Assembly (NCBI GenBank): GCA_964007475.1
Contig: OZ023275.1
Span: 3,534,001-3,598,000 of the forward strand
Length of the DNA stretch: 64,000 bases
DNA from: Hybos culiciformis
Lineage: Eukaryota > Arthropoda > Insecta > Diptera > Hybotidae
Direction of reading: 5' to 3'
The notes under the pieces are model-generated. The model was given only the letters and a program-made list of their open reading frames with translations. It was not told the origin of the DNA and made no database searches. How positions within the stretch are numbered: position 1 is the first letter of the stretch; the number at the start of each line of letters is the position of its first letter. Position numbers and translations under genes: made by a program. Below, in pieces: positions 38,124 through 61,317 of the stretch.

Positions 38124-38274
38124 TAAGCAAAAGGGGAAGGGGAGGGGGCAGCAGGGCGGCGGGCGGGCGGTTGGTCAGTGGGATTTGCGGCTGGCGCCAG
38201 CCGCAAATCCCACTGACCAACCGCCCGCCCGCCGCCCTACTGCCCTGCTGCCCCCCCCCTTCCCCTTTTGCTTA
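38124..38274. repeat. GC-rich hairpin 1 of copy B
   Basis: A near-perfect palindrome centred on GGCGCC at about 38195. Arms run TAAGCAAAAGGGG ... GGGCAGCAGGGCGGC ... GTTGGTCAGTGGGATT ... TGCGGCTGGC and back. It is extremely GC-rich in a very AT-rich region. Open frames read through it on both strands are palindrome artefacts. Confidence 0.92.
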
Positions 38275-38300
38275 CCACACAACATTTTATCGGAGATATT

Positions 38301-38442
38301 GTGAGGTACACACCGGAAGGGGGGGCAGCAGGTCGGCGGGCGGGCGGTTGGTCAGTGGGATTTGCGGCGCCAGCCGCAAATTTTACTGACCAACCGCCCG
38401 CCCGCCTCCCTGCTGCCCCCCCTTCTCGTGTATCTACCTCAC
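38301..38442. repeat. GC-rich hairpin 2 of copy B
   Basis: Same core as hairpin 1 (GGTCAGTGGGATTTGCGGCG), but the outer arms are GTGAGGTACACACCGG and its imperfect complement ending ACCTCAC. Thus the same core is framed by a different outer stem. Confidence 0.9.
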
Positions 38443-39188
38443 AAATATTTTTTTTTTTACTCGCATACGATAAATAGTGTCGTTTTAAAAATGACATTAT
38501 TCATACGATAAAAAAACGACATTGTTCATACGATAAATAATGTCGTTTTAAAAGCGACATTATTTATACAAAAAAAAAACGACATTATTTATCGTATGAA
38601 TAATGTCGTTTTGTTTTTTGTATAAATAATGTCGCTTTCAAACGACATTATTTATCGTATGAACAATGTCGTTTTTCTCGTATAAATTATGTCCGTATAA
38701 ATTATTTCGTAGTGCCTGTTACCGGCTTATGCCTCAATATTTCAGCATGAAAAAATTACCCTATATTGTCAAAAGTATGCTCAATAATGTAGAAAAGGTC
38801 TGAATAAAATTACTCAATCCATATTTGAGAAATAAATTCCCAAAAAAAGTATTTTTTTTTACCTTGAAACCCTAACCCCCCCCTTAAACTGACACTATTT
38901 ATCGGGCACTCCGAAATAATTTATACGGACATAATTTATACGAGAAAAACGACATTGTTCATACTATAAATAATGTCGTTTGCAAGCGGCATTATTTATA
39001 CAAAAAAAAACGGCATTATTCATACGATAAATAATGTCGTTTTTTTTTTGTATAAATAATGTCGCTTTTAAAAACACATTATTTATCGTATGAACAATAT
39101 CGTTTTTTTATCGTATGAATAATGCCATTTTTAAAACGACACTATTTATCGTATGTGAGTAAAAAAGATAAAATATTTGTGTTGTAGG

Positions 39189-39287
39189 CACACGGGAAGG
39201 GGGGCAGCAGGACGGCGGGCGGGCGGTTGGTCAATGGGAACGGCCGCCCGCCGCTCTGCTGCCCCGCTTCCCGTGTGTACCTCACAA
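39189..39287. repeat. GC-rich hairpin, shortened, copy C
   Basis: Outer stem CACACGGGAAGGGG with its complement CTTCCCGTGTG. The core is truncated near GTTGGTCAATGGGAACGGCC, so the CCGCAAATCC part is lost. Confidence 0.85.
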
Positions 39288-39304
39288 TATCTCCGATAAA
39301 ATTT

Positions 39305-39403
39305 TGTGCTCTAAGCAAAAGGGGAAGGGGGGCAGCAGGGCGGCAGGCGGGCTGTTGGTCAGTGGGATTTGCGGCTGGTGCCCCCTTTTTGCTTAGAACA
39401 CAA
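39305..39403. repeat. GC-rich half-hairpin, copy C
   Basis: Left arm is complete from CTAAGCAAAAGGGGAAGG to GGATTTGCGGCTGG. The right arm jumps from TGCCCCC to TTTTTGCTTAG, so most of the return arm is deleted while the outer stem is kept. Confidence 0.85.
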
Positions 39404-39693
39404 TATTCGTGGTTATGTCAGTTCACCTACATTTTGTACGGCCAACATTCGTTTTTACTCACATACGATAAATAGTGTCGTTTTAAAAATGACATTATTC
39501 ATACGAAAAAAAAACGACTTTATTCATATGATAAATAATGTCGTTTTAAAAGCGACATTATTTATACGAAAAAAACCGACTTAATTCATATATAAATTAT
39601 GACGTGCCTGAAAGCGACATAATTCATTTGTATGGTAGGAATAATGTCGTTTTTTCGTATAAATTATGTCCGTATAAATTATTTCGTAGTGCC

Positions 39694-40317
39694 ATTATTT
39701 ATCGTATGAATAATGTTGTTTTTTCCGTATAAATAAAATCGCTTTTAAAACGACGTTATTTATCGTATGAATAATGGAGTTTTTTCCGTATAAATAAAAT
39801 CGCTTTTAAAACGACATTATTTATCGTATGAATAATGTCGTTTTTCCGTATAAATAAAATCGCTTTTAAAACGACATTATTTATCCTATGAATAATGCCG
39901 TTTTTCCGTATAAATAAAATCGATTTTAAAACGACATTATTTATCTTATGAACAATGTCGTTTTTCTCGTATAAATTATGTCCGTATAAATTATTTCGTA
40001 GTGCCATTATTTATCGTATGAATAATGCCGTTTTTTCCGTATAAGTAAAATCGCTTTTAAAACGACGTTATTTATCCTATTAATAATGTCGTTTTTTTCG
40101 TATAAATAAAATCGCTTTTAAAACGACATTATTTATCGTATGAATAATGTCGTTTTTCCGTATAAATAAAATCGCTTTTAAAACGACATTATTTATCGTA
40201 TGAATAATGCCGTTTTTCCGTATAAATAAAATCGCTTTTAAAACAACATTATTTATCGTATGAATAATGTCGTTTTTCTTGTATAAATGATGTCTGTATA
40301 AATTGTTTCGTAGTGCC
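39694..40317. repeat. Higher-order tandem repeat: two 312-bp units of 60-bp subunits
   Basis: Each 312-bp unit starts ATTATTTATCGTATGAATAA and ends with the terminal sequence TTATTTCGTAGTGCC or a close variant. Inside are about four 60-bp subunits (ATTTATCGTATGAATAATG, then CCGTATAAATAAAATCGC, then TTTTAAAACGACAT). Because 60 is divisible by three, minus-strand frames read as 20-residue repeats; these are not genes. The arrangement suggests amplification of the element's right end. Confidence 0.9.
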
Positions 40318-40680
40318 AAATTATGGGGCAAAAAATTAATAAATATAAATGTGCTATTTGATTACCCAATCCTTTACAATGTGAATTTTTTTTTTTCTTT
40401 TTCTGCATATATGTATATAATATAATATTATATTTTAGTAATAATATTATAACATATAACTGTAGTTAAAATTAAAATATAAAAAGGCTACTATAGACAT
40501 CTTTGTTATTATCATATTGGTGTGTATTATACATTTTTTAAATGCTTTTATTAGTTAATTTAAATGTTTATAAGAATTTGTTTAAGATTTTTTTTTTTTA
40601 GATGAAAAAAAAAAACATATTTTGAAATACTTAACACCTCTTCTCGTAGTTTTATTTTAACACCCGTTTATATATGTATA

Positions 40681-40957
40681 TTTCAGTACTTTTCAAATAC
40701 AATTACTTTTTATTCAGTACTTTTTCAAATCCAATTACTTTTAGGAAAAATATTCAGTACTTTTCAAATACAATTACTTTTTATTCAGTACTTTATCAAA
40801 TCCAATTACTTTTGGAAAAAAGTATTCAGTACTTTTCAAATACAATTACTTTGTATTCAGTACTTTTTCAAATCCAATTATTTTTCGAAAAAAGAATTCA
40901 GTACTTTTCAAATACAATTACTTTGTATTCAGTACTAGTATTCAGTACCAAAGTATT
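40681..40957 (-). repeat. Right subterminal array of the hAT element
   Basis: Inverted counterpart of the array at 35856-36113: CAGTACTTTTCAAATACAAT and CAGTACTTTTTCAAATCCAA alternate. A 100-codon open frame across it is only a translation of the repeat. Confidence 0.88.
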
Positions 40958-40983
40958 TGAATATTCACAACTCTGAATATATT

Positions 40984-43898
40984 AACGGTTCGGGGACATT
41001 ATTTATACCAATTTAAAAACAGCTTTTTGAACTGTATTTATAGTGAAAATATTTAATAAATAAAATGAGTTAAATTTAATTAGAAATACAAATTTTCCAA
41101 TGGGTGTTCCAAATATAAGATAATTTTTTTTTTTTTTTAATTTATAATTCTTTCTGTATAAAATATAAAATTTAAACTTTTTCTTTCAATTCAAATCAAA
41201 TTAGTTAGAACTGATAAAATTGGCTTTAGAAATTGATTTTAATATGTATATAATATACTGCTATTGATTAATAAAGACTTGTTAATCGAAATTGACATGA
41301 TTTTTTATGTGTTTCGCTTCGATTTTTAATTAACATAGATACATTCTAATTATTAAAAATTATATTAAATTAATTCCATGTGATTTTTCCTGATTAAAAC
41401 CAGAAAAATAAACCCTACCGATAGTTTTCATTAACAAGTGCAGTTTCTATTATAAATTACATCAAAATTTTAAATTTATACAAACAACCTATATACGTAG
41501 ACTTATCTTCTAGATGGGCATAAGGAAACTTTCTTTATAAATAGAAAATAACGTTAAACCCTTGTATACCATTTATGATTGTGATCCATATTTGGCTTGA
41601 ACTTAGAACATTTTGAATAATTTTTTTTTTATAAGAAATTATACTAAAAAAATATAAATATAAAAACACATATATATTATTCATTATTGGGTTAAGAAAA
41701 CCTATTGCTATTACATTATGTTGATGTCTAGTCATTTATCTTAAATTTATCTCGTTTTTTTTTTTTTGTACTTTTAAAATTTAAATAAAATTATACGTTC
41801 CACAATCATGTATATTTACTTAAGTAAATGTATTTACTTATGAAACTATCAACTATACAATGCTGGCATATTTGAGATGTTTTAAATATTTATTATACGT
41901 TCATATTTATATAAAAGCATTTATACATATATTATGCATTAAAGATATTTGCACGCCGACTTTAAAGTAACATTACATATTTTTAAAATAAAATAACCAC
42001 GGAGAAAAAAAACACAAACTTATTGCACCAATCTCTTATTTGTAAGAAATAAAATCAAAAAGAAATATATCTTTAGAAAGAAAAAGAAAACCTATATAGG
42101 TATTTATAATTTGAACATTTGCAAATCCAGTTTTTGACTCATAAACAAAAAAAAAAATTACTACAAATTTATAAAACGTTTCATACGTAAAATATTTTAT
42201 GCTAAGCTTAAGGCTACCAACGCGCGTTTTATAAAATTAAAATAAAAAAATAAAAAACTCTTTTCCTACCGGCTTCAAAAGTGCGGTACATATCTAATTA
42301 AGTAAATTCCATAAAAAAAAAATTATTTGAAAATAAACTAACAAAAATGTTTTTAATAATAGTATTATTGTGACACGAAATCTGTCGCATAAATTTTCAA
42401 TAAATTAAGTTATTACCTAAACCGCATCGTTTGTTTTAACATTTCAAGGTTTCAGATGAGATAAATTTATATTATAAATGGAGCATATTAGTCTTTTGTA
42501 ATACATAATATCTTTGAGTATTATATAGATTAAATCTAAATTTTAATTTTGACATTTACAAAAAAAATAAAAATAAAGAATATAAAATTTCATTTTGGTT
42601 TACACATTTCACTGACTTTACAAAATATATGTTATAATTTTCTTGATATTTGATATTTTATTATAAAAGATAAAAATCTAATTAAGTAATATTTAAATTA
42701 TCAGAAACTTCCGGTTCTACTATTTAACTTAATGTTGATTAGGTATAAACAAAAAGGCATAAATAATCACTTAAATATATTTCTGTAATTTTTAAGAGAG
42801 CAGTTTAAATAGTTTAAATTAAAAAAAAAATACAAGTTGTAAAAATAGATTAGTCTTATTATGTTTAATTACTACAACAATCTAGAAGCGTAAAAGTTTG
42901 TGAAAAAGCATTATATCATATGACGAAGTATCTGGCATCATATAATAAAATAATTTTATTCGTATAATTTCTTTATGACAGACAAACTTTCTGATTGATT
43001 TAAATAAGAATGAATGTAGAGAAATTTATTTATAACTTTCTATTAATGAGTCCTGTCAAACTTTTATTCTGAATTTTTTGGATTGGATTGATTGCACCAA
43101 AGATCTCATATTCTATTTAATGCATTATTTTATAGTTCAAATCATGTATGTTCACAATAAACATCAAATAATTCAGCTTTCCGCTTTATATAAATTAATA
43201 CAAAAAAATTTATTCATTCGTTTTAGTATTTTTCCGGGCATTGGCCAAATTTAATATTTTTATAAATATATATATAATATATGTATACCCTATTAGAGTT
43301 TTTATATAGAGCAATAACAAAAATTAACGCCTATTTATATTTTGTTTCCCAAATGGTAAAATAAAGTCTTTTATTTTTTTTTTTTTAAAGAATATTATTA
43401 TGGTTGGTAATTAATATTTATGTTTTTTTTTTATTGTTTTGAAATTTTAATTAACATTAAATAAATGTTCAACAAAAAAAAATCAATTCTTTTATGTTTT
43501 GTTAAAATATTATATATTTAAATTCCTAGAGGTCATACACATATGTATTTATATTGAGGATGTAATTTTAATGTTTTTTAGTTAGATTTTAGAATTTTTT
43601 GCTGACGACCTTGATGTATTTTTTGTTTATATTCTTTATTTCAGCTGAAAATTAAACTGCATAAGCTTTACAAATTCATGTGAAATTAAAATGTTATAAA
43701 ACTATAATATTGTATAATAATGATTTGATTATATTTTATTTGAATTAAACCTTTATTTTAATTATGTCATAAAAATTAAAAATGCAACCATAGATAAAAT
43801 AGAAAATAAAATTGAATTTATTGTTGCGATAAGATAATAAAGTTGAATAGAAGTAATATTGTATTAGGTACATATAGTCCACAACATAATACTCATTT
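40984..43898. other. AT-rich intronic DNA, no gene seen
   Basis: A/T-rich sequence with local palindromes such as TTTACTTAAGTAAA near 41816. One richer patch lies at about 42210-42290 (CTACCAACGCGCG, CCTACCGGCTTC). No frame, RNA gene or element end recognised. Confidence 0.5.
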
Positions 43899-43906
43899 TA
43901 AACACT

Positions 43907-45385
43907 CAGGGCCGTGTCTGAGTTCATGGCCGCCTGCGTGCAAGTCGGTAAAGCCGCCTCTAAACCATATGTGCAAAATATAGTTCTTTTTAATTAGAAA
44001 AAGTTTTTTGGTAGGTGTTAGAGACGGTCCCTAAAATTTTAAATCCGGGACAGTTTTTGCGGAAAAGCCCCCATTCCCGAGTTATAGCCCTTAAAAATTT
44101 TCATACTTTACTTCATACGTTTTTTAAACAGAACTTTGATGAGAAATTAATTTTTTAAAAATCGGAAAAGAGCGGGGCGGCGGACCGCATTTTATGAAAC
44201 AAATTCACATTTACTTCCGCCTATTCTGAATGGCGATTTCAATACCAATTTTGCTGAAGAAAAATAGCAACCACTTGTGCAATTTTTGTTTGAAAAATTT
44301 AGCTTAACCATAAATAATAATCCGAGGCAAACTACTACTAAATATGGTACTACAATTGACAATTACTTTATTCTTAAACAATCTGTCTCTGAAACATTAT
44401 ACATGGAAAGTTTGTTCGGAAAATATTTGTTCTGAACTAAAGATACAAATTTTAACATAATAAATTTTTTTCGGAAAGGAGAATTCTAGCAACTTAGAAA
44501 AATTTTTTAAGCATTCGTATTCAGTCAATTTAATTTGAACTTTTTAATAAATTCTTATTTAATTATATTTACGAAATTTAATTGATAATAAATTCGATAT
44601 TTACTGATTTCTCATTAATTTATTGACAATTTATTTACTTAATTCGATTAATATTATTCCGTTGCGTGAATTTAAAAAAACGGAAGTCCAAAAACTAAAT
44701 TTATTGATATTGAAAATACAATGGGATACTATCTAGTTATAAATATTATATTACATACTTTGGACTTGTGTTATATGTAGTTATATAGTTTAGTATAGTA
44801 AATATGTAGTTATAAACTGTGTAAAGTCTATTGCGAAAATTAGAGATAAAAAATTGTGAATTTTCCAGATATGTCAACAAACATTTGTCTCTTATTTTAG
44901 CTACCACAAACCAATTATTTCCATGATAGAATATGATGACTAGGATAGTAAATTTATTATTCAAATTTTAAAAATTATACTTTTACGCGTAAGAAACTTC
45001 GAGTGTCCCATGCATGACACCTCATGTGTTTTTTTTATTATCTGTTTTCTTTATACTGCACAATCTCAGCAAATATGTTCAAGTTTTTCATAGGCGAATT
45101 GAATCTTAAGTCGAAAAAATTATTAAAATGAAGATTATAATGGAAAAAAAATAAATTTTTAAAATTAAGTAAATGCATCAATAATTAGGTTTCGTTTACC
45201 TTTTGTAAAAACATTGATAATTATTTTTTCCGTTTTTGTTAAATACGACAAAATATAAAGATTGATAACATAATAACAACTCAACACGATTTCGAATACG
45301 AAGTTAATTTAATTTCTTTCGCGGCCTTGGAAACTGGCCGCCTGCGGGCGGCGCCCGCAATGAACTATTTACAGGCACGGCCCTG
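43907..45385. mobile_element. hAT-superfamily element, 1,479 bp, decayed
   Basis: Left end CAGGGCCGTGTCTGAGTTCA, right-end complement CAGGGCCGTGCCTGTAAAT, both followed by GGCCGCCTGC-type sequence. Flanks TAAACACT and TTAACACT form an 8-bp target duplication with one mismatch, implying some age. On the plus strand about 53 codons stay open at 44268-44430 (QPLVQFLFEKFS and on), next to another open stretch broken by TAG. This may be degraded transposase, but I cannot place it in the protein. Confidence 0.85.
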
Positions 45386-45906
45386 TTAACACTCCTTTTT
45401 CAACAAACACGTCACAAAAAAATATGGTTGTTTTTTATTTTTAAAATGTCAATCATGTCAAAAGACCAATAAAAAAAGGCATCAGGACCAGGTAAATTTA
45501 TATATGAAGAGATCGAACAGCGTTTTTTGTTTTTTCTTTCCATGAAAAAGAAGTGAAAAAAGCTATCATAAAAAAGGAATATTGAAAATAGTCTACTACT
45601 ATTGTTATAATTATATGTATTAATGTTATAATTATATGCCAATAATATTTCGTCACAAATTTATTGAAATGTGATCATTTAAATTACTCGAATTGTACCC
45701 ATATTTTTTTTGAACGAACTATTTGACGTAACAAAATAAGTCTTGATAATAAAGACGTCATGTAAATCCTATGAAGCTTATTTATATGTTTTTTTTGATT
45801 TGTAGTTACCTGCAGGCTAATGACTCTTTATCTAATTAGGTTATTATAGTTATTTGTTAAAAATATTAATTCTAAAACCATTATTGACGTCAATATTAAA
45901 GCTTAC

Positions 45907-45927
45907 CTCAATTCCGATTTGTCTCAT
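45907..45927 (-). CDS. Candidate first coding exon (7 codons, MRQIGIE)
   Basis: On the minus strand, ATG at 45927 opens seven codons (MRQIGIE) that end exactly at a consensus donor, GAG|GTAAGC. The exon ends in phase 0, and the main coding exon at 2833 begins in phase 0, so the two would join as MRQIGIE-KDDPLKR. The bases before ATG are AAAA, a good insect start context. This would make the protein 361 aa and the intron about 43 kb. The region just upstream is A-rich with no pyrimidine tract, so it looks like a 5' UTR rather than an acceptor. A match of phase alone has a one-in-three chance, so transcript evidence is needed. Confidence 0.4.
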
Positions 45928-48113
45928 TTTTGTATTTCTGTTTTTTTGTTGTTTTGTTTTTATTTTTTTGTAATTATTATTTTGGCAATAATTTTAATAA
46001 AATTTCGTTTATTTGAAAAATAAAATAAAATTTCACTCTTTTTAGTTTAGTTTTTTATAACTTTTTTTTTGTTTTTCCTCTAGGTATATACGTATATTTT
46101 TTTTTTCTTAATTTTAATTCAAATTATAACAGAAATTCATCAATGCAGAAAATTATATTCAAAAAAATATTTATTTGATTTTTTTTGAATTATTTTTTTT
46201 GAATTATTTTTTTTAAATGAAGTTTTTTTTTTTGAAAAAATTTTGAACTATAAAAATATAATTTTTGTTTTTTATTCAATAATTTTTTTTTTTTAATTTA
46301 TATTTTTGTGTTAATTACAATTTATTTGTTTGACAATTCTTTTCTTTTTTTTTTTATTTTTTTTTTTTTTTTGCGAAAAAAAATCGAAAATTTGTTAAAC
46401 TTTATTGTTTGTTATTGTTCAACATCCATGAAAAAAGACAAAAATAAAATAAAATTTAATAATAATTCTTTTATTTATTTTGTTTTGTTTGTAGCAAAAA
46501 AATTTTACTTTTTTTTAATTAAGTCCACAGCACTAAATTTGACAGAGTAATGGAACTTAATGAGAGAAATTTAAATGGAATTTTGAAAATAGCTTAGATC
46601 TAATCTATGTACTTTAGGGTATATATTTTCTGAAGTGTTTTGAAGGAGGGCTCAAGTTATATATGAAAGAAAAATGTTTAACTTTAAAAAAAAAAATGTT
46701 TGATTGATAAAAGCTTAATTTAATTATATCTTAAAAATCAACTATAGAGTCAAGTTTTCTAAATCAAAGGGTAGGTTGAAATAACTTTTTAAAGGTAAAT
46801 ATGACAATTATAAGTTTTAACATATATTATAAAAATGATTTCTATTTTGTTTTTTAACATTGCACAAAAATTTAAAATAAAATTATGCCTTCAAAATACA
46901 ATTTTTGCAATTCACTATTTAATTTTCTGACAGACAATAATTATAAAAAATAGAACATGCCAAAATTTGCATCAATAATATAAGAATAATATATGCATCA
47001 ATAATATATGTATATGTTGAACTGTACTGTGAAAATTCATTGACCGTACAAGCTGTGATGAATAAAATAAAATTTTCAAACCTTTTTTTTTTTTTTTAAT
47101 TTTTTTTATATAAATTTTATTTTTTAATTCAAATAAAAGGAAAAAAAAAATTGTATATTTTTATTACGAATTTAAAAAAAAAACACATCCGAACTACTGA
47201 ATTATTCAACATCAACTGAACTTGAAAAGTGAAATATAAAAATTCAACAATAATAATATCAGAAAAAAAAAAAAACTTTTTTTTTTCCGTGGTAAAAAAT
47301 AAATTGTAAATTAAAGAATGAATGAAGCACCAAACCATCATCGTTGTGTAGAGTAGAAGAAAAATTATATATAGTATTGTATAGTTTAAAAACCTCTCAC
47401 AGAAATTTAATTTTTTTTTTAATTTTTGTGGTGAAAATAAAAAGTTAAATTTTTTGTTGATCTAACAACGAGCTTAATACACAAAAAAAAAATATTTTAA
47501 TAAAAGAGTTAAAAGAGAATTAATTCTAGCTTCATTTAATTTCTACCAGATACCGGCTTGCGAGAGAATTGAGCAGTTTTATTTATTGCTTTTGTTAAAA
47601 AAAAAATTTTTTTAAAAGATATCACCGCTCAAAAATAATTATTTACTCAGGTGATTAATTAAAAAAAAAAAAAAAAAAATTATTTTCTTCTGTTGCTTAC
47701 TTTGAGAGAAAAAATAAATATAAAATTTGTTGTATATTCGCTCCTATTCGTAAATATTAAGAAGTTCATTTATTTTTTATCAGTAGAAAATTATATTAAA
47801 ATGGGTACATTATTAAAAAAAAAGAAAAAAAAAGATATTTGTATCTAATTTTTTATTTTCTTATTTAAAGAAGAGACTGCGGGAATTTTGGCGTTATTGT
47901 AAAGTAAAAAGATGAAGTAATGGAATTAATGTAAATATTTACTTTTTCTTACTTTAATTAAAAAAAAAGAAATTTTTTTTAGTTAGTCAACAAAAGAATA
48001 TTTAATACAAAAAATACGTTAAGTACACAGTAGCCGTCAATTGAAAGTAAATGTCGTATGAAAAACAGACTATAAACGGTCTCATTGAATGGTTGTCCTT
48101 CACTAAAATGCTT
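45928..48113. other. T-rich (plus strand) region upstream of the candidate first exon
   Basis: Long T runs on the plus strand at 46040-46380 and 47080-47480, so A-rich on the minus strand, including tandem TTTTTTTTGAATTA near 46176-46215. It could hold the 5' UTR and promoter of the minus-strand gene. A GC-richer patch at 47545-47580 (AGATACCGGCTTGCGAGAGA) is a possible core promoter, without a clear initiator. Frames of 70-80 codons here are homopolymer products. Confidence 0.4.
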
Positions 48114-48116
48114 TTA

Positions 48117-48410: not shown

Positions 48411-51400
48411 TTAATTTATGTGTATTTTATTTTTTTTTAATTTAAGGTAAATTTTGCAAAAAAAAGTTAGATATTTTTGAAAATCTAAAGTTTCAGTTTT
48501 TTAAATCGCCGCATTTATGCCATTTGAAAGGGAATAGGATGACAAAATTTCTACGTTAAATTGACCTTTCAAAAGTCTTTATTATGGAATAAAACTATTC
48601 AAAGGCTGAAATTTTGGATTTTTTGAAAAATTATGGTAAATTTCTTCTTGAATACAGATTTTGTCTTTCCGCCCACAGAAATGTACTATAGGTATTATCT
48701 TTTTTGAATATTATGTTCACAAATAAATTTTTAATTATTGATAAAACGGATCAGTTTCAAATCCAATTTTTTGTCAAAGAAGAACTTACAGCTTGTTCGA
48801 AGAGGATAATTTTCAATTTTCATTTTCATGCCCACCTAGAACATTCTATTTACTTCTATATTCCGTAAATACTTAATAAATTACTGTACAAAAAAATTTA
48901 TACGCTTATAAATTCATTCATAAAAAAAAAAAAAAAAATTAACGTTAATAATTATTATTTTTATGCATTTGATTAACAATGGGATATGGTATTATAATAA
49001 AGGAATTAATGCACTTTTAAAGAACGGCTTCATTGTTATTTAAAAATATAAAGAGTAGATACCAAAAAAAAATTAATATTGTATTGTGGTGTGCTTTCAC
49101 CCGCAACAGAATTCTTTTTTTTTTCATTTATAATATCATGTAGGTACGCCGATTTTTGTCTCGTAATATTATTTATTATATACATCGTCGTAATATTTAT
49201 TTAATTAAAACCGCCATAATAACAAATAATATAACGTATATAAAACTTATATGATATTGATCAATTTAAGTAATTTTTGTAATGTGATATATTCTCAAAG
49301 CTATCATGTAACTCATATAAAATTCAATAAAAATTTTGTTCACGAAAAAAAAATTTTTATTTTTATAATTCGTTATAATGAAAATATTATTAATTTAATG
49401 TAAAATTTATTTTAGATTTAAATATTTAAATATATTTAAAATCATATAATTTGCTAAGTATATTATATCTATTATGGTTTGATGTCTTACAAAAAGAGCT
49501 TAAAAAAGATCAAACTTAAAGATCAAATGAAGCGCAAACTGAGATAATCTTCTTATAAAAGTAATTACTTTTTTAACCTACATGAATTTGCGCCAAGTGT
49601 GTATAGTATTAGCGTATTATGTACAAGAAAACACAATCTTATAAGTTAAAATAAAAATTCGGCAAAATAATTAAACTGCTGCTAAATTGCAAAAAAAAAC
49701 AAAATCAAATTGCTTCCCAAAACAAAGCATATAGCCCGTTTAATTTTTTTTTTTATTGAATAATTATTTTTAATTTAAAATATTAAGGTTTGTTATAATT
49801 TATTTTTTTAACTTATTTTTTTTTTTAATTATAATCTAAAACTTAGGGACTATTAAAGATTTTTCGCTGTGTCAAGTTGGTGGTAACCGGAAGTAATTTT
49901 AATGTTTTTTTTTTTTTGTTTTTTGAATCGAGAAAAAAAAGGGGAAAAATATTCATAATTGCCTTTATACATTTTTCACTTTCAACTTTTTTGAATTTCC
50001 ATTTGACCTGCATTTATTAACATAAATATATTGGTATTTAATGCATATATACATAAATGAAATTCAAATTTATCTATTCACCATGTCCGAAACAAAAAAA
50101 AAAAAAAACGATTTTTGCAAAAATGCGTAAGAAAAAAAAAACACCCTACATACAATATAATTGTACGGGGGAAAGATAAAATTAAAAATCATGATAAATT
50201 TTCGGTCATTACACTATTATAACTTTAATATATTTAAACAGGGTTAAAAAAAAAAATGAAAATTTATAGTTACGATTGTTTGAAAGTTTTCTGGAAATTT
50301 ATATTATTTTGAATTTGAAATTGAATGTAAACTTATGAGAGCTTCCAATCAAACTTGATTTTAATAAACGAACTAACGAAGTAAGGTTGAAATGAAAATT
50401 AATTAATTTTTTTTAGTCTTAAGTTTTCGAAATCAATTTAATTTAATCCTGAAAAAAAATTTTTTTTTCTACGGTTAATTCCCAAAAAACTTTTTGAATT
50501 ATTAAAATCAAAACAGATTTCTTTTTTGTAGGTCTTATAAGTTAGTTATCATTAAATGAACAAAATATTATTACTTTTAATTTTTTTTTTCATTATGGGA
50601 AATTCGTAAATGTTATCATAATAGTCAGTTATAAATACATAAAGTATAATGAACATAAAAAAAATGAACAAACAAGATAGTAAATTTAATAACACTACAT
50701 AAATACACCCACACTATGTATAGTTTTAAGTAAGCGGACATAATTTTTATGTAATCAAATTTTCACTAGAAACAAAAATCCAAGTTTATTGGACTTTAAT
50801 AATTAAAATATATTGTATATATAGAAATTCATTCATAGTAATAGTTAAAAACAAAAAAAAAAAAACAAAAAAAAAAGAATAACAAAATTTTGGTAAGTCA
50901 TCAAATCAATTTATTAATAACAATGTACCTACCAAAAAAAAATAAATAGTATTAAGAAAAGTGAAAAAGTATATTATATACAGAAAAAGATAGTAAAAGT
51001 TTTTGTATGTCATGTCAACGCCCTATTAAATTTCCAAAGGAAAACCTTTTTTTTTTGCTTACAAATTTTTTTTTTTTTTTGTTTTTGAATATTTTCGTTT
51101 TCTAAACTTATGAATTTTTTCAAGAATACAGAGAGACACTTAAAAACTTAAATAAAATTAGCTTTCACAAATCATTCATCAAACACTTCTAAAATTTCTG
51201 TTTCTAAAGAAATATTTTTATTTGGTAAGTCACTTCTGGCTCTAAATTTAATAAATAATTTCCTTCTAAAATCCTTGATTCAAAAATAGCATATCGATTT
51301 ATATTAAAACAATTAAGTTACAAATTTTTGAAAAGCCGAATTATTAATTGTAACAATTATTACATAAGCATTTTACTTTCATTTATTCAGCACCTACTTT

Positions 51401-54400
51401 TGAAAACGGATTTAAAATAAAATTTTATCCCAAAAAAAAATAAATAAATTGATATGAACGAAAGTAATAAAATCATGCGTATCCATTTTTCACACAATTT
51501 TTCTACACATTACAGGTTTTACAGAATTGTACCATTGACTTCTTTTAAATATAGCAGGAAATCTTAATTTTCTTTTCTTTCAATGTTTTACATTTTTATG
51601 TTGAACCAATCAAATCAATTAAAAAATTATATTAATACTTAAAGTGTATTTTATTATTAAATGGAAAATGTAAACAAAACATATAATAAAAAAATCTTGT
51701 AAATTTGATGTGAAAAATTATTATTTTTTAATTAATTACAAAATTATAGGTATATATTTTATAATATGATTAATGTTGGAAGAAAAATTATTTAGTTTCA
51801 CTTGAATTAAATAAAGACATTAAGAAAAAAAATCAATCCAATTTAAAACAATATTCAATTAATTAAATGCTTGTTATTTTATGATTTCAAACTTGACAAT
51901 GTTTTCACATATTGTAAATTACATTATTTGAAAATTTCTTGAATTTCTTTTTTTAGCTTATTATAAGCATATTTCAATCTTTTCAGTATGTAATCGAATT
52001 TTATTTTTTTTTTGCCTGGAATAAAAAGTTCATTATTACTAATATAGGTAAATGATACTTTTTTTAAATTTGAGAATTTTGGTCTTGATTTTCTTGATTC
52101 AATATAATTTTCAATTTTCATGTTATACCAAATTGCAAATGATAATTGCTTTAAAATATTTTATTGTTTTTATAAGGAATTTATTAAGGATATCATTATC
52201 AAATTTATCAAAAAACTATGATAATTTATGCCTAAAAGCTTAATTTAATTTTATAATATGCCAATATAATAACTAATTAATATTTTTAATCCCTTAATTA
52301 AACCTTAACTTGAACAAAATAATCATAAATTGAAAGAGTATAATAGTGTTAAACTAAATTTAAAACCATTATTAGATTATTACTAATATAGGTGTTAACT
52401 TACTTTGAAACCGTTATTGTTATGAAAAAAGGTTCGCCAATCAGTTCTGACATCATATGTTTATAATATAAACTTGGGTTTGTAGAAACATATTAATTAT
52501 TTTTACAAGGGCAACTTATATATAGTGAATAATTTGAAATTTTTGACGATTAATTTCATTAATTAATTCGTTCTTGAATCTTATAAATTAAAAAAAAAAA
52601 CAACATTACATACCTACTTTCTTTTGGAACGAATATAATTTTATTGCTTAACTATCAATTTTACCAATTAATGTGCATGACTATTAAAAAATTTGATAAC
52701 TTTTTTAATTACATAGAGAGATGATCGGTTGTATGTTTTAACAACACACAAATTTAATTACAAAACGTGATGTATGTAAATATTTTAGTAATCATGTACC
52801 TATGTCAAATCCATTCTAACTATTAAATATTAAGATTACTGAATTAAATTATACAGTAGGTGCATCCATATTATATACATATTTGTAGAAATTTGACTTA
52901 AGTTAAATATAATTTTCTTGCGAATTGAAAATAAAACCTTTCACATTTTTAATAAAATGTAGTTAAAAAAAATTATATATTTAGATCCTAAATATTTATT
53001 TTTAAATTCCGAAAAAAAAACAATATAAATATATAATAAAGTTATGCATATTTTTTTTTAATTATTATTCTATAGAATGTGCAAAAAAAAACAAAATTTA
53101 ACATATTTTTAAGCTATCCCATCCATTCATCATGTAATAAACGGCATGGGAGTATTATTACATCAAAATTATATTGTTTACTCATGCTCATGAATTTGAA
53201 TAATATAATTTCAATTTTCACAAACTATTCGAAATTTCTCTTTCATTTATGTGAAAATATATATTATTTGTTTTAATAATTGCAATTTTAAATGAAAGTG
53301 CACAATGTATAGTGTTGTGTATATTATAATTTCGCTTTTATGTAGAAAGGAATTTCTATATATATAAATACAAAATAAGTGTAAAGTTCAAATGCAATGG
53401 TAAGTGTATATTGGTATTTTTCTTTTTTTTAATTTAAATTTAAAATTGAATTAGAGTATTTTATAATATAGTTGTAATGCTACCGATGGTCCATGTATTA
53501 TTATAACATTCATGTGAAAGGCCAACTTGTAGAACAAAATTGTTACTGTATTACAACCATTTTATCGACTTAACATTTAATAGTCTCTGATCAATTCATT
53601 ACGTTTTCATAAAATATACCGAATAGAAAGAAATTTTGAGATAGTTCAGTTCAGTTAGACTGTACTAAAAAAAACACAAAATTAGGGACTCATAAAATTT
53701 GTTAATACGATTTTTTAGTTATATTTCGAAGTCTGTATTATTATTGTATAGGTTTCAATTTTATATTTGTTGCACTTTATTTATTTTCATTTTTATCATT
53801 TCGATAACCACAATAATAATATAAAATTTATTTTCAATTTTTTAATGAAATAGAAAATAAAAATTGATATTTTTTTTTTTATTAAGTACTATATAAGTAA
53901 AATGGTTTGTTATCTGATATTAGAAATAAAGTGAAATGTGTGAAAATAAAGAGTTTTTTATTTTCCAGATCATATAATTCTTTGTTATTATTAGCTATTA
54001 TAATAATAAAAAAATAATAGGTTTTTATATTGTATTTAAGTATATTTATCAAACTGTGAAATGTGTTTATCAAAAAAAAAAATACAGTATTTTTCATTAT
54101 CTATAAATGATAAAGTCCATTCAATAAAAAAAAGGAATATTGTTGTCAAGGCAAATATGTACTTGTTTTGATATTTCTTTTTGAGTCGAACTCTCTTTCC
54201 AGAATCAAACATTTAATGAAGTTTTCAATATTTCACTAGAAGAATGAAATATAATAATTAAATTATTAGTATTTATGCATACTTACTTAATTATCAGTCT
54301 AGCTCAGCTTCTTCCAGTTTTTTTTTTAATTTATTTTATTTTATTTAATTAAATAATCTGATTCCCGCTCGCTAAGAAATTTTATGCGTAAATTTTTTTT

Positions 54401-56551
54401 TCCGAACTTTGCTTGGATACCAACCGACTCTAGTTTGAAATAAATGAATATTTTAAAACCTTCCCTTAAACACGATCTATTCAGCGGTGAAAACGAAAAT
54501 GAAAAATTTATTTTATTTTATCATATTTTATATTATAGATATACACTTTGAGTATATGCATTATTTTTTTATATCTAAAGTTTATTAACGTAATTTATAC
54601 TAAAATCTTAAAAACTTTACTGATAACAATTTTATATTGATTTCCGAAGTACACATATGTAAAAACAATGTTAAAGCCATGCAATCATTATTATTTTAAT
54701 TAAAAATATATTTGTTTTAACATTATTATTACGGGTAAAATTTCAAATTTACAAAGAAAGTAAAATTGAAATAAAATAATAATTATACAAAAATATTGCT
54801 TATTGAAAAAATAGCAAAGATTTTTATGTAGGTATATGGGAAGAGTATTTTATATTCATTAAAATGAAAATGACAAAAATAAAACAATAAAATGTACAAA
54901 ATTGTAAAAATAAAAAATTGCATAATAAAATGTAAAATTTTTTATAAGAAATCATGAAAAACAATTTTTTCTTTCAAATTATGTACGGAATAGAAAATTA
55001 TATTTAATGCGAACTTCCTTGAGCCGCAGAATTATCCACCTAATTGCTTATTATTTAATTTTTCAACTCTAGTCAATATAAAAAAAAGTATTCATTTCAA
55101 AAGAATAAAATCTCCTTTCTTTATTGAATTGAAGTGAATTTCTCACTCATATGTATATTCTTTTAAATCTATTTATTAAAAGAGTAGAAAGCTTAATAAT
55201 TAAGTACACAAAAATACTAGCGGCTATAGATAACTTAATACTTTAGGAAAATTAAATGTTTATAAAATTTTTCAAACTAGCCCCGAAACCAAATATCTAA
55301 AGAAAACTGTATATTATCTCTGTACCTCTTCCATTAATTAGTTGGACAAATCCCCACAATTATAGCAATCTTATAATTCAAAAATCTTGGTCTGAGTTCA
55401 CGTACTGAGATATTATATTCTGTTGACCATTGCATTCATAAAAAATAACTCATAAAATAAGTTTCTACGATTCATAAGTTGATATAACGTTGATAAAATA
55501 ATGTGGAAACATAAAAATCAAGATTATGTCCCTGCATTAAATTAAATAACTTTTTATCTTAATAATTTTTATTTAATTTTATACCTAAGTAATTTCATTT
55601 TTATGATTATTGAAAATTTATAATTTTTCGATTAATTTGATTTAAAAAAACAAAAAATTATAAGAAATAATTTATATTGCATAATACTTTCATTTAATAT
55701 GAATATTAAAAGAGCTTACGCATAATTAGCTATTATAAAATTTATATAAATATTAAACTGAATAAAATTGCTATAAAATAATGGACAAAAATTATAAAAA
55801 TTATTACATTAAAATTTCTTTAAAGACTATCACTTAATAACTTGAATTCCTTTCGATTTTATTTTAAAAATTATTATGTATATTTTATTAAAATGACAAA
55901 CATTTATTATAAAAACAAAAAGTAACTAAATTAACAACGAAAAAATAATTACTGATTCATAAATTCAATTTTTTTTCCAGAATTATTGAACCTGTTTACA
56001 CAATATTGACAACAAAATCTTTGAAATGCTAAAGTTATAATCTTAATAATATTTATAAAATTTTTAAAAATTGTAACAACAAGAGAAATTTCATGAAAAT
56101 TGGAAAATTAAGTTAAAGCGCATTAAAGGAAATTTTTATGCCATGATGAGGTCATGGTCTGCTTTGTATGGTTTGATTATAATTATAATTATTGTCGTTA
56201 TAATTTCGAATTAAAATTTCTATTATATTTTGGGGCTTAAAATTTCAGCATTAATATACAATAAATTTTCAATCAAATCAAATTACATTTAAAATGGTTA
56301 TAAAACTTTAAAAAAAGATTATTAAAGAATTATTAAACATTAAAATTAATATAAATTAATTCTTAATTCGATAAGGCGATAATGTGATAATGTAATTTAA
56401 ATAAAAATAATGTTGTTGTTATGTCTAACGTCAAAAAAAAAATTTATTGGTCAATATACTTTATGAAAAATGTATTTAAAAATAATGTGCTAATAGCCGT
56501 AACAAAAAGAAGGAAATGGTTTAATAATTTCTCTTTTATTTTATTACTGTA
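48411..56551. other. AT-rich DNA upstream of the gene, no gene seen
   Basis: The first part (48411-48850) is of higher complexity (CATTTGAAAGGGAATAGGATG, TTTCCGCCCACAG) and may belong with the open frame before it. The rest is A/T-rich with many homopolymers. A patch at 54290-54500 (CAGTCTAGCTCAGCTTCTTCC) is richer but has no long frame. Confidence 0.45.
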
Positions 56552-56554
56552 TTA

Positions 56555-57025
56555 TACCGTATCTACACTTGGACCTTAAAACTGACCTTAGAGCGGAACT
56601 GACCTGAAAACTGACCTGTGAACAGGCCTTTCTCATACAAAAAAAAGGAAAAAAAATAACTAACCTTTGCGTAAAAGGCCAGTTTGCAGACAAAAAAAGT
56701 TAGTTTGCAGACAAAAAAGGTCAGTTTGCAGACATTATAGTTGCCAACTTTTCTGCTTTTTCCTTGATTTTTTCTGCCTTTTTTCTATTTTTAAAAGGTT
56801 GGCAATACAAATTTAAAAATAAACAAGTAAACAACAAACAGAAATTCAAAATTTTTAAATAATAAAATTTGAATAATTTGGAAATTGGAAATTTTTAAAT
56901 AATAAAATTTAAAAGTAAAAAAATAAAAAATGAATTCCAGCAAAAAAAAAAAAAAATCAAGTGTGTACGGGTTTCGTTAAGGCGACCTTACGAACTGACC
57001 TTTGCAGACAAGTGCAGATACGGTA
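56555..57025. mobile_element. 471-bp TIR element with TTA target duplication
   Basis: Left end TACCGTATCTACACTTGG, right-end complement TACCGTATCTGCACTTGTC, flanked by TTA on both sides (56552-56554 and 57026-57028). Inside are repeated motifs AACTGACCT and CAGTTTGCAGACAAAAAA. No protein is encoded. A 3-bp TTA duplication suggests a PIF/Harbinger-like MITE, but the ends lack the usual GG start, so the superfamily is open. Confidence 0.7.
56741..56805. repeat. Hairpin inside the 471-bp element
   Basis: TTGCCAACTTTT at 56741 pairs with AAAAGGTTGGCAA at 56793-56805, with a pyrimidine-rich loop. It could be a tiny nested element or a structural part of the host element. Confidence 0.6.
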
Positions 57026-57028
57026 TTA

Positions 57029-59474
57029 GATATAAAATATTAATCCGCAGTGAATGATAATTAACAAAAAAAAAAAAAAAGAAGAAATTATGACATAATA
57101 ATGAATGAAAATAATTCAGGCGATCATTTTGAAAGTTATCAAAATATTATTTTTATATTTTGAAAAGCTTTAAAATATCTTAAATTTTCTTCATTAAGTA
57201 TATTATCTCAGTTGACTGGATTAATTGATAAATCTTTATCAGAGACTAGAAAAAAATATAGCATCAATATAATTTAGAAACAAAAAAATTAATAATTCAA
57301 GATTTCAGATACAAAAAACAGAATTAATAAGAAAATAAATTATATTCAAACAAAAAAAAACAAAAATTGATTTTGAAGATATTGCAAGCAGGTGTTCTCA
57401 TATCATAATTATTTCACAAAGTAAAAGTTAGGAAATTGTTTTGAAAGTTTTAATTCGGTTAATAAATATTTCAATTCATGATATCATGACAAAAAAAAAT
57501 TGATGTTAAGAATCAAATCGTGTAATGATTTCTCTAAACATATAAGTACATATACATTTTTTTTTTTTTCAGAATCATTTTACTTTTTTTATATTAAATT
57601 TTTAATGGAATATTAACGAAATCATAATTATTATCTCTAAAAATTTTGAATTTGATAAATATAAAGTTAGTGACTGTTAGCGATAAGTGTCCAACAAAAT
57701 AGTAAAAATAATCATAATTCCAGGTTTGCAACTTAAGTCTTTCGTTTTTCGTTTTAATTAATACATAGTTTTAGTTTGCATTTAAAAAATAGCTTTATAA
57801 GTTTTTTTTTCAGAATTATTCGAACAACAAATTTTTGTTGAATTGGTTTAGAAGTAATTTAAAACAGCTTACGAGTTTACAATTTTATTTTAACACAAGA
57901 AGAATATACCATTATTCTTGCCAATTTTCTTATTTCTTTCAATTTCTAGTCAGAGAAATATTACAAATTTTTTTTTTTTTTCATTATTTTCTAATTTTAC
58001 ACTTTGATCTTTGATTTAAATATTTTGATTTGTGTATTATATATTTTAATAATATTTAAATTAAGGAACTTTTTTAGATTACGCAGCATACACTTAAAAG
58101 TTAAAATTATATAACGGAAAAAGAAGAAAAAGAAATATTAAACTGTAATTAATGTAAATATTCAATTATAAAATTATTATACAGTTTCAGCAACTGTGAG
58201 TGATATTTTACAGAACGTTGTCTGTTATTAAAATTAATGGTTTAAAAAAAATTCATTATTTCCTTCTTTATTATAATAAAATTCTGTAATCGTATAAAAA
58301 AATTGGATAAAATTGATCAAAGAACTATATAATCTTCAGTTAGGAAATATACGATATTAATTATCTATTAATTTATAATAATTGTTAAATTTTAGAACTG
58401 ATACTGATCTTAATAATAACGAGCTAATAATATCAAAATTTGTACTTCATTTATAAAGTTATCAGTTTTTTTAATTTCAATTACTTTTCTGTTGAACAAT
58501 TCACAAAAAAAAAAGAAATTGTGTCTAACGTACGATTGAAAAATATAAGTACGAGTTATTATGGATTACTTACCCAAATTCTATCTAGATGTTGGTCTCT
58601 GTAAACTCAATTAGCTTAAAATTTTAAATCATAAATCTTTAAACTCTGTAAGGAGTTTTCATCTTCTATTAGTGTAATTGTATATATGAATTAAAATTAC
58701 ATTAATACAAGATGAAATTGACAAACATATTGCACATAAAAAAATGTTCAATGGAAACTTGTATTTTGTGTAACTTCAATTCGAATATTAAATACTCATA
58801 ATTATAACACAAGAAGAAGTAAATAAGCTCTCGAATAGGTTTTTCAAACATTTCCAGAGTTGTGAGAGTTTTCGTTTTATTTGTAGGTCTCGTTAGATCG
58901 AATTAAAAATACCAGAAATATTATGTATTTAAAAATGTTTTTAAAAACCACCATATCGGACTATCTATAATGCAGCAAAGAATATCGATTAGTTATTTGA
59001 AATTGTGTACTATCACTTAGTTTTTCCTTCTCTGGTTAAAGTTAAAACAAAATACACGCTATTTTTTTTTGAAATTTTATTATCATAAAGCCAGATTTAC
59101 CATAAAATAATACTTAAAATTAAAAGCAAAATAATTCTTATTAAAAAAATCGATATATAGAACTAATATCGTTATCTCTATTTGTGATAATAAAAAAAGA
59201 CCGTAATTGAACATTTTTGTTGTAAATTATTAGCTTTTTTAATATGTTTTCCAATTTCACTTGATAATAATTAAAAACAATATAAACATTCATAATTATT
59301 TACACCACATGTTTATTTTAACAAAAGTTATTAATTTATTAATTTTGATAAAAAAAAAATTTTATAAATTATTTAGGTTTGTATTGCAAAATATGGATGA
59401 AAATAAAATAAAAAGATATATATTTTTATTACAACGTTTTTATCATTACAACGTTTTTATCAACTCACATTCTT
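57029..59474. other. AT-rich DNA, no gene seen
   Basis: A/T-rich, with long homopolymers. The only notable item is a possible 25-base exon on the minus strand at 58598-58574 bounded by acceptor TTTACAG and donor GTAAGT, described under findings. An 84-codon frame at 59261-59515 runs into the repeat that follows and is not recognised. Confidence 0.45.
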
Positions 59475-59966
59475 GTCTGTTTGTCTGTCCACGAAATTTT
59501 GTAATGAAATTTTAGACCACTTTCCGACAAGTTACAGCTCCGAAATTTTGAATATAGCTCTGAACCCGATGACAATACAATATTCTACCACTTTAATCAT
59601 GATTTGAAAAGTTTCTCGTCTGTTTGTCTGCCCGCGAAATTTTGCAATCAAAATTTCACAACCAAAAGTTTGTCCGATTTCATTCAAATTTAGTACATAA
59701 AAAGAACAAATGATTGAACACACGAATTTCGTAACAAAAAATTTATTGGCCTCCTACCCAGCGACGTCTTATCGGGAGGACTTCAAAAGTTCGTCCGATT
59801 TCTTTCAAATTTGGTACATAAAAAAAGGACATATTAAACACACAAATTTCGTAAAAAACATTTATTGGCCTCCTACCCAGCGACGTCCTATCGGGAGGAC
59901 TTCAAAAGTACGATTTTATTCAAATTCGGTACATAAAAAGAAGAAATGATTTAGCACACAAATTTT
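59475..59966 (+). repeat. Repeat region with ~120-bp units, left part
   Basis: GTCTGTTTGTCTG-CC-CGAAATTTTG occurs at about 59475 and 59618. Then ~120-bp units follow: ACACACGAATTTCGTAAC, TTTATTGGCCTCCTACCCAG, GGGAGGACTTCAAAAGT, TTTCAAATTTGGTACATAAA. Units start near 59717, 59837 and 59955; the third is broken at 59966 by the foldback element. A 79-codon frame at 59710-59949 just translates the units. Confidence 0.85.
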
Positions 59967-59974
59967 GGGATGCA

Positions 59975-60310
59975 TGTCAGTTGTACAATTACCAGTTGTA
60001 CAATTTTTTTGTACCAGTTGTACAATCCAAAATACCACTTGTACAATTTAAAATTTAATTGTACATCTGGTTTTTTTGGATTGTACAAGTGGTAAAAAGA
60101 TTCCACTTGTACAATTGACCACTTGTACAGAGAAGAACCATTTGTACAGACTAGTGCCAGTTGTACAATCCAGTTGTACATTTTAGACCAATTGTACAAT
60201 CTCGATTTTTTCGAATTAACCACTTGTACAATTTTTGACCAGTTGTACAATCTTTTTTTTTTTTGTAATTTACCACTTGTACAATTTTTGACCACTTGTA
60301 CAATCTATAT
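59975..60310 (+). repeat. Left TTGTACAA array of the foldback element
   Basis: More than a dozen TTGTACAA palindromes, mostly preceded by ACCA-C or ACCA-G, spaced irregularly by about 15-35 bases. The open frame on the minus strand here is only a translation of the array. Confidence 0.92.
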
Positions 60311-60487
60311 TTTATAGAATTAACGGCTACATGACATAACCACGAATGTAATAATTAAACCGCGAATGTCATAAACAAAAATCCTCGCGGCCTTATTTTA
60401 TTTTTAAAAGTGAAATAAGACCGTGACCAAAAAAAAAGTTTATCGGAGGTCTAATTTCATTTTTATAAATGAAATAAGGCCGCGTAA

Positions 60488-60570
60488 TCTTGTAAGGTGA
60501 GCACAAAGGGCAGGGGCAGCAGGGCGGCGGGCCTTGCTGTCCCGTGCCCTGTGTGCTCACCTCACAAGAT
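60488..60570. repeat. GC-rich hairpin, short form
   Basis: Stem AAGGTGAGCACAAAGGGCAG pairs with the stretch CTGTGTGCTCACCTCACAAG. The inside is GCAGGGCGGCGGGCCTTGCTG; the CCGCAAATCCCACTGACC core is missing. Confidence 0.85.
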
Positions 60571-60613
60571 CGGAGGTCTAATTTCATTTTTATAAATGAA
60601 ATAAGGCCGTGTA

Positions 60614-60757
60614 ATCTTGTGTGGAAAACACACAGGGCAGGGGCCAGCAGGGCGGCGAGCGGACAGTTAGTCAGTGGGATTTGCGGCTGGCGCCGCAAAT
60701 CCCACTGACCAACCGCCCGCCCTCCGCCTGCTGCCCTGTGTGCTCACCTCACAAGAT
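60614..60757. repeat. GC-rich hairpin with the shared core
   Basis: Outer stem ATCTTGTGTGGAAAACACAC and its partial complement. The core is CAGTGGGATTTGCGGCTGGC, the centre GGCGCC, and the return arm CCGCAAATCCCACTGACC. This is the same as copy B hairpin 1, apart from four missing bases at the centre. Confidence 0.92.
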
Positions 60758-61310: not shown

Positions 61311-61317
61311 ACTCACC

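What the first reader, a model, noticed from the sequence alone, without database searches (positions are those of the whole stretch)
38124..60757. GC-rich hairpin cassette shared by two unrelated foldback elements
The palindrome core (CAGTGGGATTTGCGGCTGGC, centre GGCGCC, return CCGCAAATCCCACTGACC then AACCGCCCGCCC) occurs in copy B (38124-38274, 38301-38442), shortened in copy C, and again at 60614-60757. The hosts differ in ends, arm repeats and target duplication (9 bp versus 8 bp). The core is almost identical at 22 kb distance, whereas AT-rich arms share nothing. Outer stems also vary (TAAGCAAAAGGGG; GTGAGGTACACAC; GGTGAGCACA). A second shared piece, GACATAACC-CGAAT, lies outside the hairpins in both. 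This suggests a hairpin module that is exchanged between, or inserts into, foldback elements. Structure is seen; the mobility of the module is inference.
Basis: partly seen in the sequence, partly recalled or inferred. Interest (0 to 1): 0.85.

Follow-up and report, generated by a model that had tools for sequence, protein, structure and literature searches.

The report
GC hairpin shared by foldback transposons
A GC-rich palindrome repeated many times in what is probably a fly genome sits inside several otherwise unlike foldback transposons, and at least part of its spread came from elements landing inside one another and being copied together rather than from the palindrome jumping alone.

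Summary
GC-rich hairpins at 38116-38282, 38299-38444 and 60617-60754 (plus three shortened ones) share their core; the AT-rich arms of the two host elements do not match. The genome has 342 Mb and is probably a fly's. The core 19-mer occurs 2,179 times in it (reversed control 0). Of 143 exact core halves in the loci held, 142 have arm units of one of five foldback families (F1-F5) within 1 kb.

How it moved: in 13 of 16 F2-hosted copies read, a whole F4 element with the hairpin abuts near-identical octamers on both sides, while the outer F2 duplications differ. That junction occurs 121 times. F1 carries an F3 end beside its hairpins; that junction occurs 199 times. So the hairpin travelled inside nested elements; I saw no sign of it moving alone.

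Unresolved: the majority core is identical in all five outer-stem classes although the stems differ. Exchange between hairpins or constraint could explain this. Two copies show a join inside a hairpin. In one contiguous stretch, 64 of 79 core places could not be assigned by consensus stems.

The parts
37827..38716 (+). F1 foldback element ('copy B'), ends GGGGTCC|CGAAATAATTT and GGCACTA|CGAAATAATTT, 9-bp target duplication TGTTACCGG on both sides
   Evidence: the surrounding unit recurs at three other loci
38905..39693 (.). second F1-like element ('copy C'), both ends of the GGCACT type, two shortened hairpins inside; no target duplication found by the scan
38092..38114 (+). relic of an F3 end (GGTGAACTGACATAACCGCGAAT) beside hairpin 1; junction with F1 found 199 times genome-wide
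38116..38282 (.). GC hairpin 1 with F1a-type foot (TTGTGTTCTAAGCAAAAGG)
38299..38444 (.). GC hairpin 2 with F1b-type foot (TTGTGAGGTACACACCGG)
39177..39287 (.). GC hairpin 3, shortened core
39304..39403 (.). GC hairpin 4, half core; joined to hairpin 1 in loci L209 and L210
59968..61318 (.). F2 foldback element, ends GGATGCA|TGTCAGTTGTACAA and GGGTGAG|TGCCACTTGTACAA, 8-bp target duplication AAATTTTG
60325..60347 (+). relic of the other F3 end (GGCTACATGACATAACCACGAAT) inside F2
60377..60887 (.). F4-derived block (GCGGCCTTATTTC arm units) carrying hairpins 5 and 6 inside F2; no readable F4 ends
   Evidence: (F2_W versus F4_L183 and F4_L169)
60490..60567 (.). GC hairpin 5, core deleted
60617..60754 (.). 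GC hairpin 6, full core, F4-type foot on the right side

Best explanation
The GC-rich hairpin is the central palindrome of a group of abundant non-coding foldback transposons, probably moved by MULE (Mutator-like) transposases. SHOWN: family F4 (about 754 bp when full) has a near-perfect 146-bp GC hairpin at or near its centre and has inserted at many sites. A whole F4 sits in F2 elements with the same octamers on both sides, and the outer F2 duplications differ, so most simply one F2-with-F4 composite multiplied. F1 carries an end of F3 beside its hairpins, F3 carries an F4-like arm unit on both sides of its hairpins, and the one F5 copy carries an F1 arm piece. INFERRED: F1, F3 and F5 got their hairpins by the same kind of nesting followed by internal deletion, and each composite then spread as one unit. 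INFERRED, less sure: hairpins of different families keep exchanging their inner ~90 bp, with the G/C runs as edges, by template switching, crossing over or conversion, so that the core stays the same while outer stems and arms drift apart. The hairpin is thus cargo of, and a recombination site between, foldback elements, not a transposon itself.
For: F4: both ends found in 27 of 30 loci fetched by one arm end; 22 of 27 have an exact 8-9 bp target duplication, all 22 different; full 740-754 bp forms hold the hairpin at or near the centre, shorter ones look like internal deletions. Nesting: 13 of 16 F2-hosted loci hold F4 abutting GCCCTAGC-type octamers on both sides with 0 bp between (4 exact pairs, 8 with one and 1 with two mismatches); outer F2 duplications found in 12 of the 13, all different; the junction occurs 121 times. 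F1|F3-end junction 199 times; 7 of 10 F1 copies with both ends in reach carry an F3 relic. F4-like arm unit in F3, F1 array piece in F5. In loci fetched by arm ends, F4-F1 core distance is 0.022 and 0.005 against foot distance 0.30 and 0.13. Within F4, core and foot change alike (8/1204 vs 2/784, p = 0.33). L209 and L210 join window 37815-38198 to 39300 onward inside an 87-nt hairpin overlap.
Against: The donors of F1, F3 and F5 are inferred from relics; no inner target duplication was found for them, and the F4-like block in F3 has no F4 ends. In window B and L166 the F4-derived block has no readable ends or GCCCTAGC copies. Core identity between families could be selection on active lineages instead of exchange; equal core and foot change inside F4 says little about its active ancestors, and 12 of 40 F4 half-arms were skipped there for deleted cores. 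One search kept only arms with at least 41 of 43 core positions (27 of 38, 7 of 12, 4 of 6), which favours intact cores. The 40 copies behind one search are the best-scoring of 1,085 candidates, hence biased. In a contiguous 22.6-Mb stretch 64 of 79 core places were not assigned to a consensus foot. L209 and L210 carry the same join and may be one event.
Confidence: 0.66

Rival explanations
1. Common descent with constraint: all families derive from one hairpin-bearing foldback; arms, ends and outer stems were replaced or diverged, while the inner core was kept because it does something (bound by a transposase or host factor, or transcribed into a hairpin RNA).
For: One end layout in all five families (seven mostly unlike end bases, then tandem-repeat arms, 8-9 bp duplications). 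Feet are homologous across families. Majority core the same in all foot classes.
Against: F4 in F2 is a nested insertion with its own duplication; other families' end or arm relics lie beside the hairpin in F1, F3, F5. Inside F4 the core does not change more slowly than the foot. 7 of the 22 F4 copies with exact duplications hold no exact core half, though the loss may have followed insertion.
Confidence: 0.22
2. Independent mobile hairpin: the GC palindrome inserts by itself into foldback elements, like the GC clusters of fungal mitochondrial DNA.
For: Edge of identity at the G-run; two hairpins side by side in F1 and F3; many core places not read.
Against: 142 of 143 core halves held have F1-F5 arm units within 1 kb and the last lies in a stretch fetched by an F1 end; flanks beside the hairpin in F1, F3 and F5 are other families' arm or end pieces; no duplication around a hairpin alone was seen, though no separate scan was run.
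Confidence: 0.08
3. Assembly artefact or contaminant: the GC-rich blocks are foreign or mis-joined.
For: GC 59-68% in hairpins of a window that is mostly 17-30% GC.
Against: 2,179 exact cores in the genome, with hairpin copies on the three large and on small contigs; 22 different target duplications for the hairpin-bearing family F4; 128 prokaryote and viral matches to a core 16-mer extend to at most 21 bases, as chance would give; no plasmid match for 60487-60757.
Confidence: 0.02

Closest known systems
Tm1, Mutator/Foldback family of root-knot nematodes (PMC3169594; abstract, sections 6 and 9 and part 1 of section 11 read)
   Same: Asymmetric 7-bp end motifs outside the inverted repeat, arms of tandem short repeats, 9-bp target duplications, many small non-autonomous forms, some members with a hairpin motif inside.
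   Different: Tm1 is one family with a known MULE (Phantom) transposase and a 24-nt histone-type hairpin; here five families share one ~146-bp GC palindrome, and no transposase is tied to them.
Galileo of Drosophila mojavensis (PMC3573991; passages and section 8 read)
   Same: One central region was found with terminal repeats of three subfamilies (D, E, X); exchange between copies is proposed there. This is the nearest precedent found for a shared centre.
   Different: Galileo subfamilies are recognisably related (77% in the repeat ends for one comparison), belong to the P superfamily, and are bounded by 7-bp duplications; here arms share no detectable similarity, and one transfer is a nested insertion with its own duplication.
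Tetris of Drosophila virilis (PMC4079207; abstract start and passages read)
   Same: Non-autonomous dipteran foldback with tandem-repeat arms and 8-10 bp duplications, assigned to Mutator by its authors.
   Different: No GC hairpin and no sharing of a centre across families in the passages seen.
GC clusters of yeast mitochondrial DNA, GC42 (PMC4478555; abstract, start of the introduction and section 17 read)
   Same: GC-rich palindromes repeated in AT-rich DNA; merger and shuffling of palindromes reported.
   Different: Those propagate on their own in mitochondria with a putative target duplication; here the hairpins read lie inside nuclear foldback elements.

Membership tests
MULE-type foldback elements (Tm1/Phantom-like) | 8-9 bp target site duplication | tested here: met
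   F4 22 of 27 loci with both ends (21 of 9 bp, 1 of 8 bp), which required GG ends, found one in 31 of 37 loci over F1-F5; F1 9 bp in 5 of 10 copies fetched by their end; F5 one copy only
MULE-type foldback elements (Tm1/Phantom-like) | Seven unlike end bases outside the inverted repeat | tested here: met
   Read by eye from both ends of all five families, mostly unlike apart from the leading GG; the rule itself from PMC3169594
MULE-type foldback elements (Tm1/Phantom-like) | Arms of tandem short repeats in inverted orientation | tested here: met
   for F1 and F2; read by eye for F3-F5
MULE-type foldback elements (Tm1/Phantom-like) | Family member encoding a MULE transposase | tested here: inconclusive
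   145 MULE (PF10551) matches, 150 of 167 candidates scored, several open frames of 464-499 aa; the sequence past one 471-aa frame has tandem-repeat arms, but what was read does not show F1-F5 ends, and no F1-F5 element with a transposase was found
Galileo / P superfamily foldbacks | 7-bp target duplication (7 or 8 in D. willistoni) | tested here: not met
   9 bp in 21 of 22 F4 copies and 5 of 5 F1 copies; F2 8 bp in 11 of 12
Independently mobile GC palindromes (GC clusters) | Solo copies outside other elements, with their own target duplication | tested here: inconclusive
   None noticed among 143 half-arms held, but 64 of 79 places in a contiguous stretch were not assigned
hAT elements | 8-bp duplication and CAG-type ends (recalled) | tested here: not met
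   9-bp duplications in F1 and F4; the ends fixed by those duplications begin GG

The most novel reading that the evidence does not exclude
The inner ~90 bp of the GC hairpin is an exchange cassette: its G and C runs mark the edges of tracts that are swapped between hairpins of non-homologous foldback families, so that ends, arms, outer stem and core of each element have different histories, and the hairpin is a recombination hot spot that makes new chimeric families.
Probability: 0.33. Interest if true: 0.72.

Novelty: new variant of a known kind. Interest (0 to 1): 0.5.

Why it matters
Foldback elements are known to shuffle their parts, but how one centre can come to sit between unlike arms is rarely readable. 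Here one step is readable with its target duplication and a later spread (121 matches of the junction), and another by its junction (199 matches). The genome also offers about two thousand core halves in which tract edges of hairpin exchange could be counted. If core exchange is confirmed, long palindromes would be a source of new transposon families, and would complicate any family tree drawn from a part of such elements.

Tried and rejected
The 16-mer was too short a choice and spent the one genome-contig scan. Rfam at gathering threshold and tRNA searches found nothing in the window. A first duplication scan without requiring GG ends gave many hits inside the arrays; the second was used. 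hAT and P membership were considered and dropped on duplication length and ends. Assigning MULE transposases to F1-F5 failed: the one flank read does not show their ends. Literature: I found no report of this sharing in searches of an open-licence library, judged mostly from titles and abstract starts; (five of six terms) gave 0 papers and one search gave 10, of which I read passages of PMC3630058 and earlier of PMC4079207. Miscounts in my notebook: 23 of 27 duplications (right: 22 of 27) and 7 exact octamer pairs (right: 4). One search's host labels always named some family, even at zero motif count; one search repeats that step with a minimum of two motifs and is used instead. The consensus half-arms aligned were typed by eye; one search computed the majority core per foot class and agrees, and the computed F3a foot differs from my typed one at one base.
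Full report
WHAT IS THERE. The window is C3:3534001-3598000 of a 342-Mb genome in 509 contigs. The one gene piece I looked at (2075-2758, minus, Pfam AKAP2_C) has its best named relative in a hoverfly (Eupeodes corollae, 54%); of the eight named relatives listed, seven are flies, midges or mosquitoes and one a beetle. The host is therefore probably a fly; the species is not known to me. In AT-rich DNA (17-33% GC in the 1-kb bins outside the two sites) lie GC-rich hairpins. The two sites match each other only in the GC-rich pieces.

HOST ELEMENTS. A scan for 8-9 bp direct repeats around ends that were required to begin GG, in the window and in 37 loci (17 from the hairpin search, 20), shows five families: F1 GGGGTCC|CGAAATAATTT / GGCACTA|CGAAATAATTT; F2 GGGTGAG|TGCCACTTGTACAA / GGATGCA|TGTCAGTTGTACAA; F3 GGCTACA|TGACATAACC / GGTGAAC|TGACATAACC; F4 GGCGCAG|TGAAATAAGG / GGGGGAT|GGAAATAAGG; F5 GGGGCAC|TGAATTATGACC / GGCTCCA|TGAATTTTGACC (one copy, L152). 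In all five the first seven bases mostly differ between the two ends and the rest is an inverted repeat built of tandem units, the layout reported for the nematode Mutator/Foldback family Tm1 (PMC3169594). A duplication was found in 31 of 37 loci; none in L129, L134, L138, L149, L172, L178. One of the 31 is a run of T (L155), and L131-L133 share the window's duplication, so they are not independent. Copy C of the window gave none.

F4 IS AN ABUNDANT HAIRPIN CARRIER. A search with its end gave 1,200 first-look candidates, of which 40 were scored; these 40 match at 100%. In 30 loci both ends were found in 27; 22 of 27 have exact duplications, all different. Full forms of 740-754 bp have a 146-bp hairpin at or near the centre, with 69-71 of 73 positions paired in L180, L183, L184, L186 and L160; their outer arms match at 247-259 of 314-317 columns. 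Short forms of 187-449 bp lack all or most of the core and seem, by eye, to rejoin at short repeats such as GGCCTTATTTC.

NESTING. In 13 of 16 F2-hosted loci examined, a whole F4 abuts GCCCTAGC or a near copy on each side with no base between (4 exact pairs, 8 with one mismatch, 1 with two); outer F2 duplications were found in 12 of those 13 and all differ. Most simply, F4 entered F2 once and the composite multiplied. The junction has 121 matches genome-wide with up to 2 mismatches, reversed control 0. The window's own F2 copy and L166 are a second subtype with an F3 end relic and no such octamers; in L165 the left end was not found. In F1 the F3 end GGTGAACTGACATAACC lies beside hairpin 1; this junction has 199 matches, control 0. 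Of 12 F1 copies fetched by their end, 10 have a second end in reach; 7 of 10 carry an F3 relic, 8 of 10 at least one exact core half, 5 of 10 an exact 9-bp duplication. L215 is a 406-bp F1 that keeps only a hairpin foot. F3 holds an F4-like arm unit on both sides of two hairpins, without F4 ends. F5 holds a piece of F1 arm beside its hairpins.

CORE AGAINST FOOT. Anchored on the foot and not on the core, the majority 43-nt half core (CAGCAGG...GCGGC) is the same in five foot classes, and that exact core is present in 55 of 78 F4, 10 of 26 F1a, 4 of 14 F1b, 12 of 15 F3a and 13 of 17 F3b half-arms (4, 3, 2, 2 and 1 feet without a CAGCAGG start dropped). To avoid choosing copies by the hairpin, I used loci fetched by arm ends only: F4-F1 core distance 0.022 and 0.005 against foot distance 0.304 and 0.128 for the two F1 hairpins; within F1a 0.031 and 0.062 (arms with under 41 of 43 core positions dropped: 11 of 38, 5 of 12, 2 of 6). 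Within F4 the core is not slower than the foot (8/1204 against 2/784, p = 0.33; 28 half-arms, 12 skipped) or clearly slower than the arm (14/1288, not tested). I read this as recent sharing of cores after the feet had parted, but constraint acting on active lineages only would look alike. One search gave the same picture but was conditioned on an exact 19-mer and is not relied on.

RECOMBINATION THROUGH HAIRPINS. L209 and L210 match window 37815-38198 and then 39300-40014/40016 at 98.8-99.5%, the two stretches overlapping by 87 nt within hairpins 1 and 4. I infer that one state arose from the other by a join inside the hairpin; the two loci may be copies of one event. L131-L133 match the window over about 2,960 bp at 99.8-99.9%, so the composite between 36.8 and 39.8 kb is itself repeated.

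CENSUS. Whole-genome counts: core 19-mer 2,179 exact; F4 foot 909, F3 foot 372, F1a foot 369 (each up to 2 mismatches); reversed controls all 0. In the 81 stretches examined, 65 have an exact core half with arm motifs nearby (F1 14, F2 16, F3 12, F4 23, F5 1; one counted twice) and L216 has one without; 142 of 143 half-arms have at least two arm motifs of one family within 1 kb. On C1 up to 22.61 Mb the 100 listed cores form 79 places, 21 of them full hairpins; 15 of 79 have a listed zero-mismatch foot (F4 11, F3 3, F1a 1) and 64 do not. At least four of the 64 look like F1 or F4 copies by other lists (19331934 is L220; 12778229 is near an F4 end; 15027410 is near the F1|F3 junction; 18933352 is near the F2|F4 junction). 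The rest were not read: further host families and solo hairpins are not excluded.

TRANSPOSASE. 145 MULE domain matches exist, with open frames such as 471, 464, 483 and 498 aa. The 1,051 bp past one 471-aa frame show a tandem-repeat array of ~15-16 bp units and what looks like another foldback inside it. This supports MULE elements with such arms in this genome, but F1-F5 ends were not seen there, so the mover of F1-F5 is inferred from layout and duplication length.

JUDGEMENT. Galileo in Drosophila mojavensis already gives a case of one centre with repeats of three subfamilies (PMC3573991). What is added here is a shared GC palindrome across five families without detected arm similarity between the two in the window, one transfer marked by its duplication, and an edge of identity at the G-run. 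I rate it a new variant of a known kind.

Noticed in passing
window 23972-28133 and 28139-32300: Tandem duplication of 4,162 bp at 99.95% identity: very recent duplication or assembly artefact.
   Followed up: no
window 35821-36116 and 40678-40983: Inverted arrays of a 72-bp unit flank site A; outer ends CAGAGTTGT.. with AATATATT on both sides hint at a larger foldback of about 5.1 kb enclosing the F1 elements; the octamer is its own reverse complement, so it is not firm evidence of a duplication.
   Followed up: partly
window 59663-59965 and 61314-61444: The F2 element lies next to a 119-bp tandem array, with related pieces on its other side.
   Followed up: no
window 39693-40318: Array of F1 arm units (60-bp period, 312-bp higher period), a satellite-like expansion next to the element.
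   Followed up: no
L221: Past a 471-aa MULE frame: tandem-repeat arm with what looks like another foldback (GTGCCTTAAAG...CTTTAAGGCAC) nested in it.
   Followed up: partly
L215, about 590-910: A small F3-type element (GGCTACATGACATAACC...GTCAGTTCACC) without the GC hairpin lies next to an F1 copy; may be a deletion derivative or a hairpin-free form.
   Followed up: no
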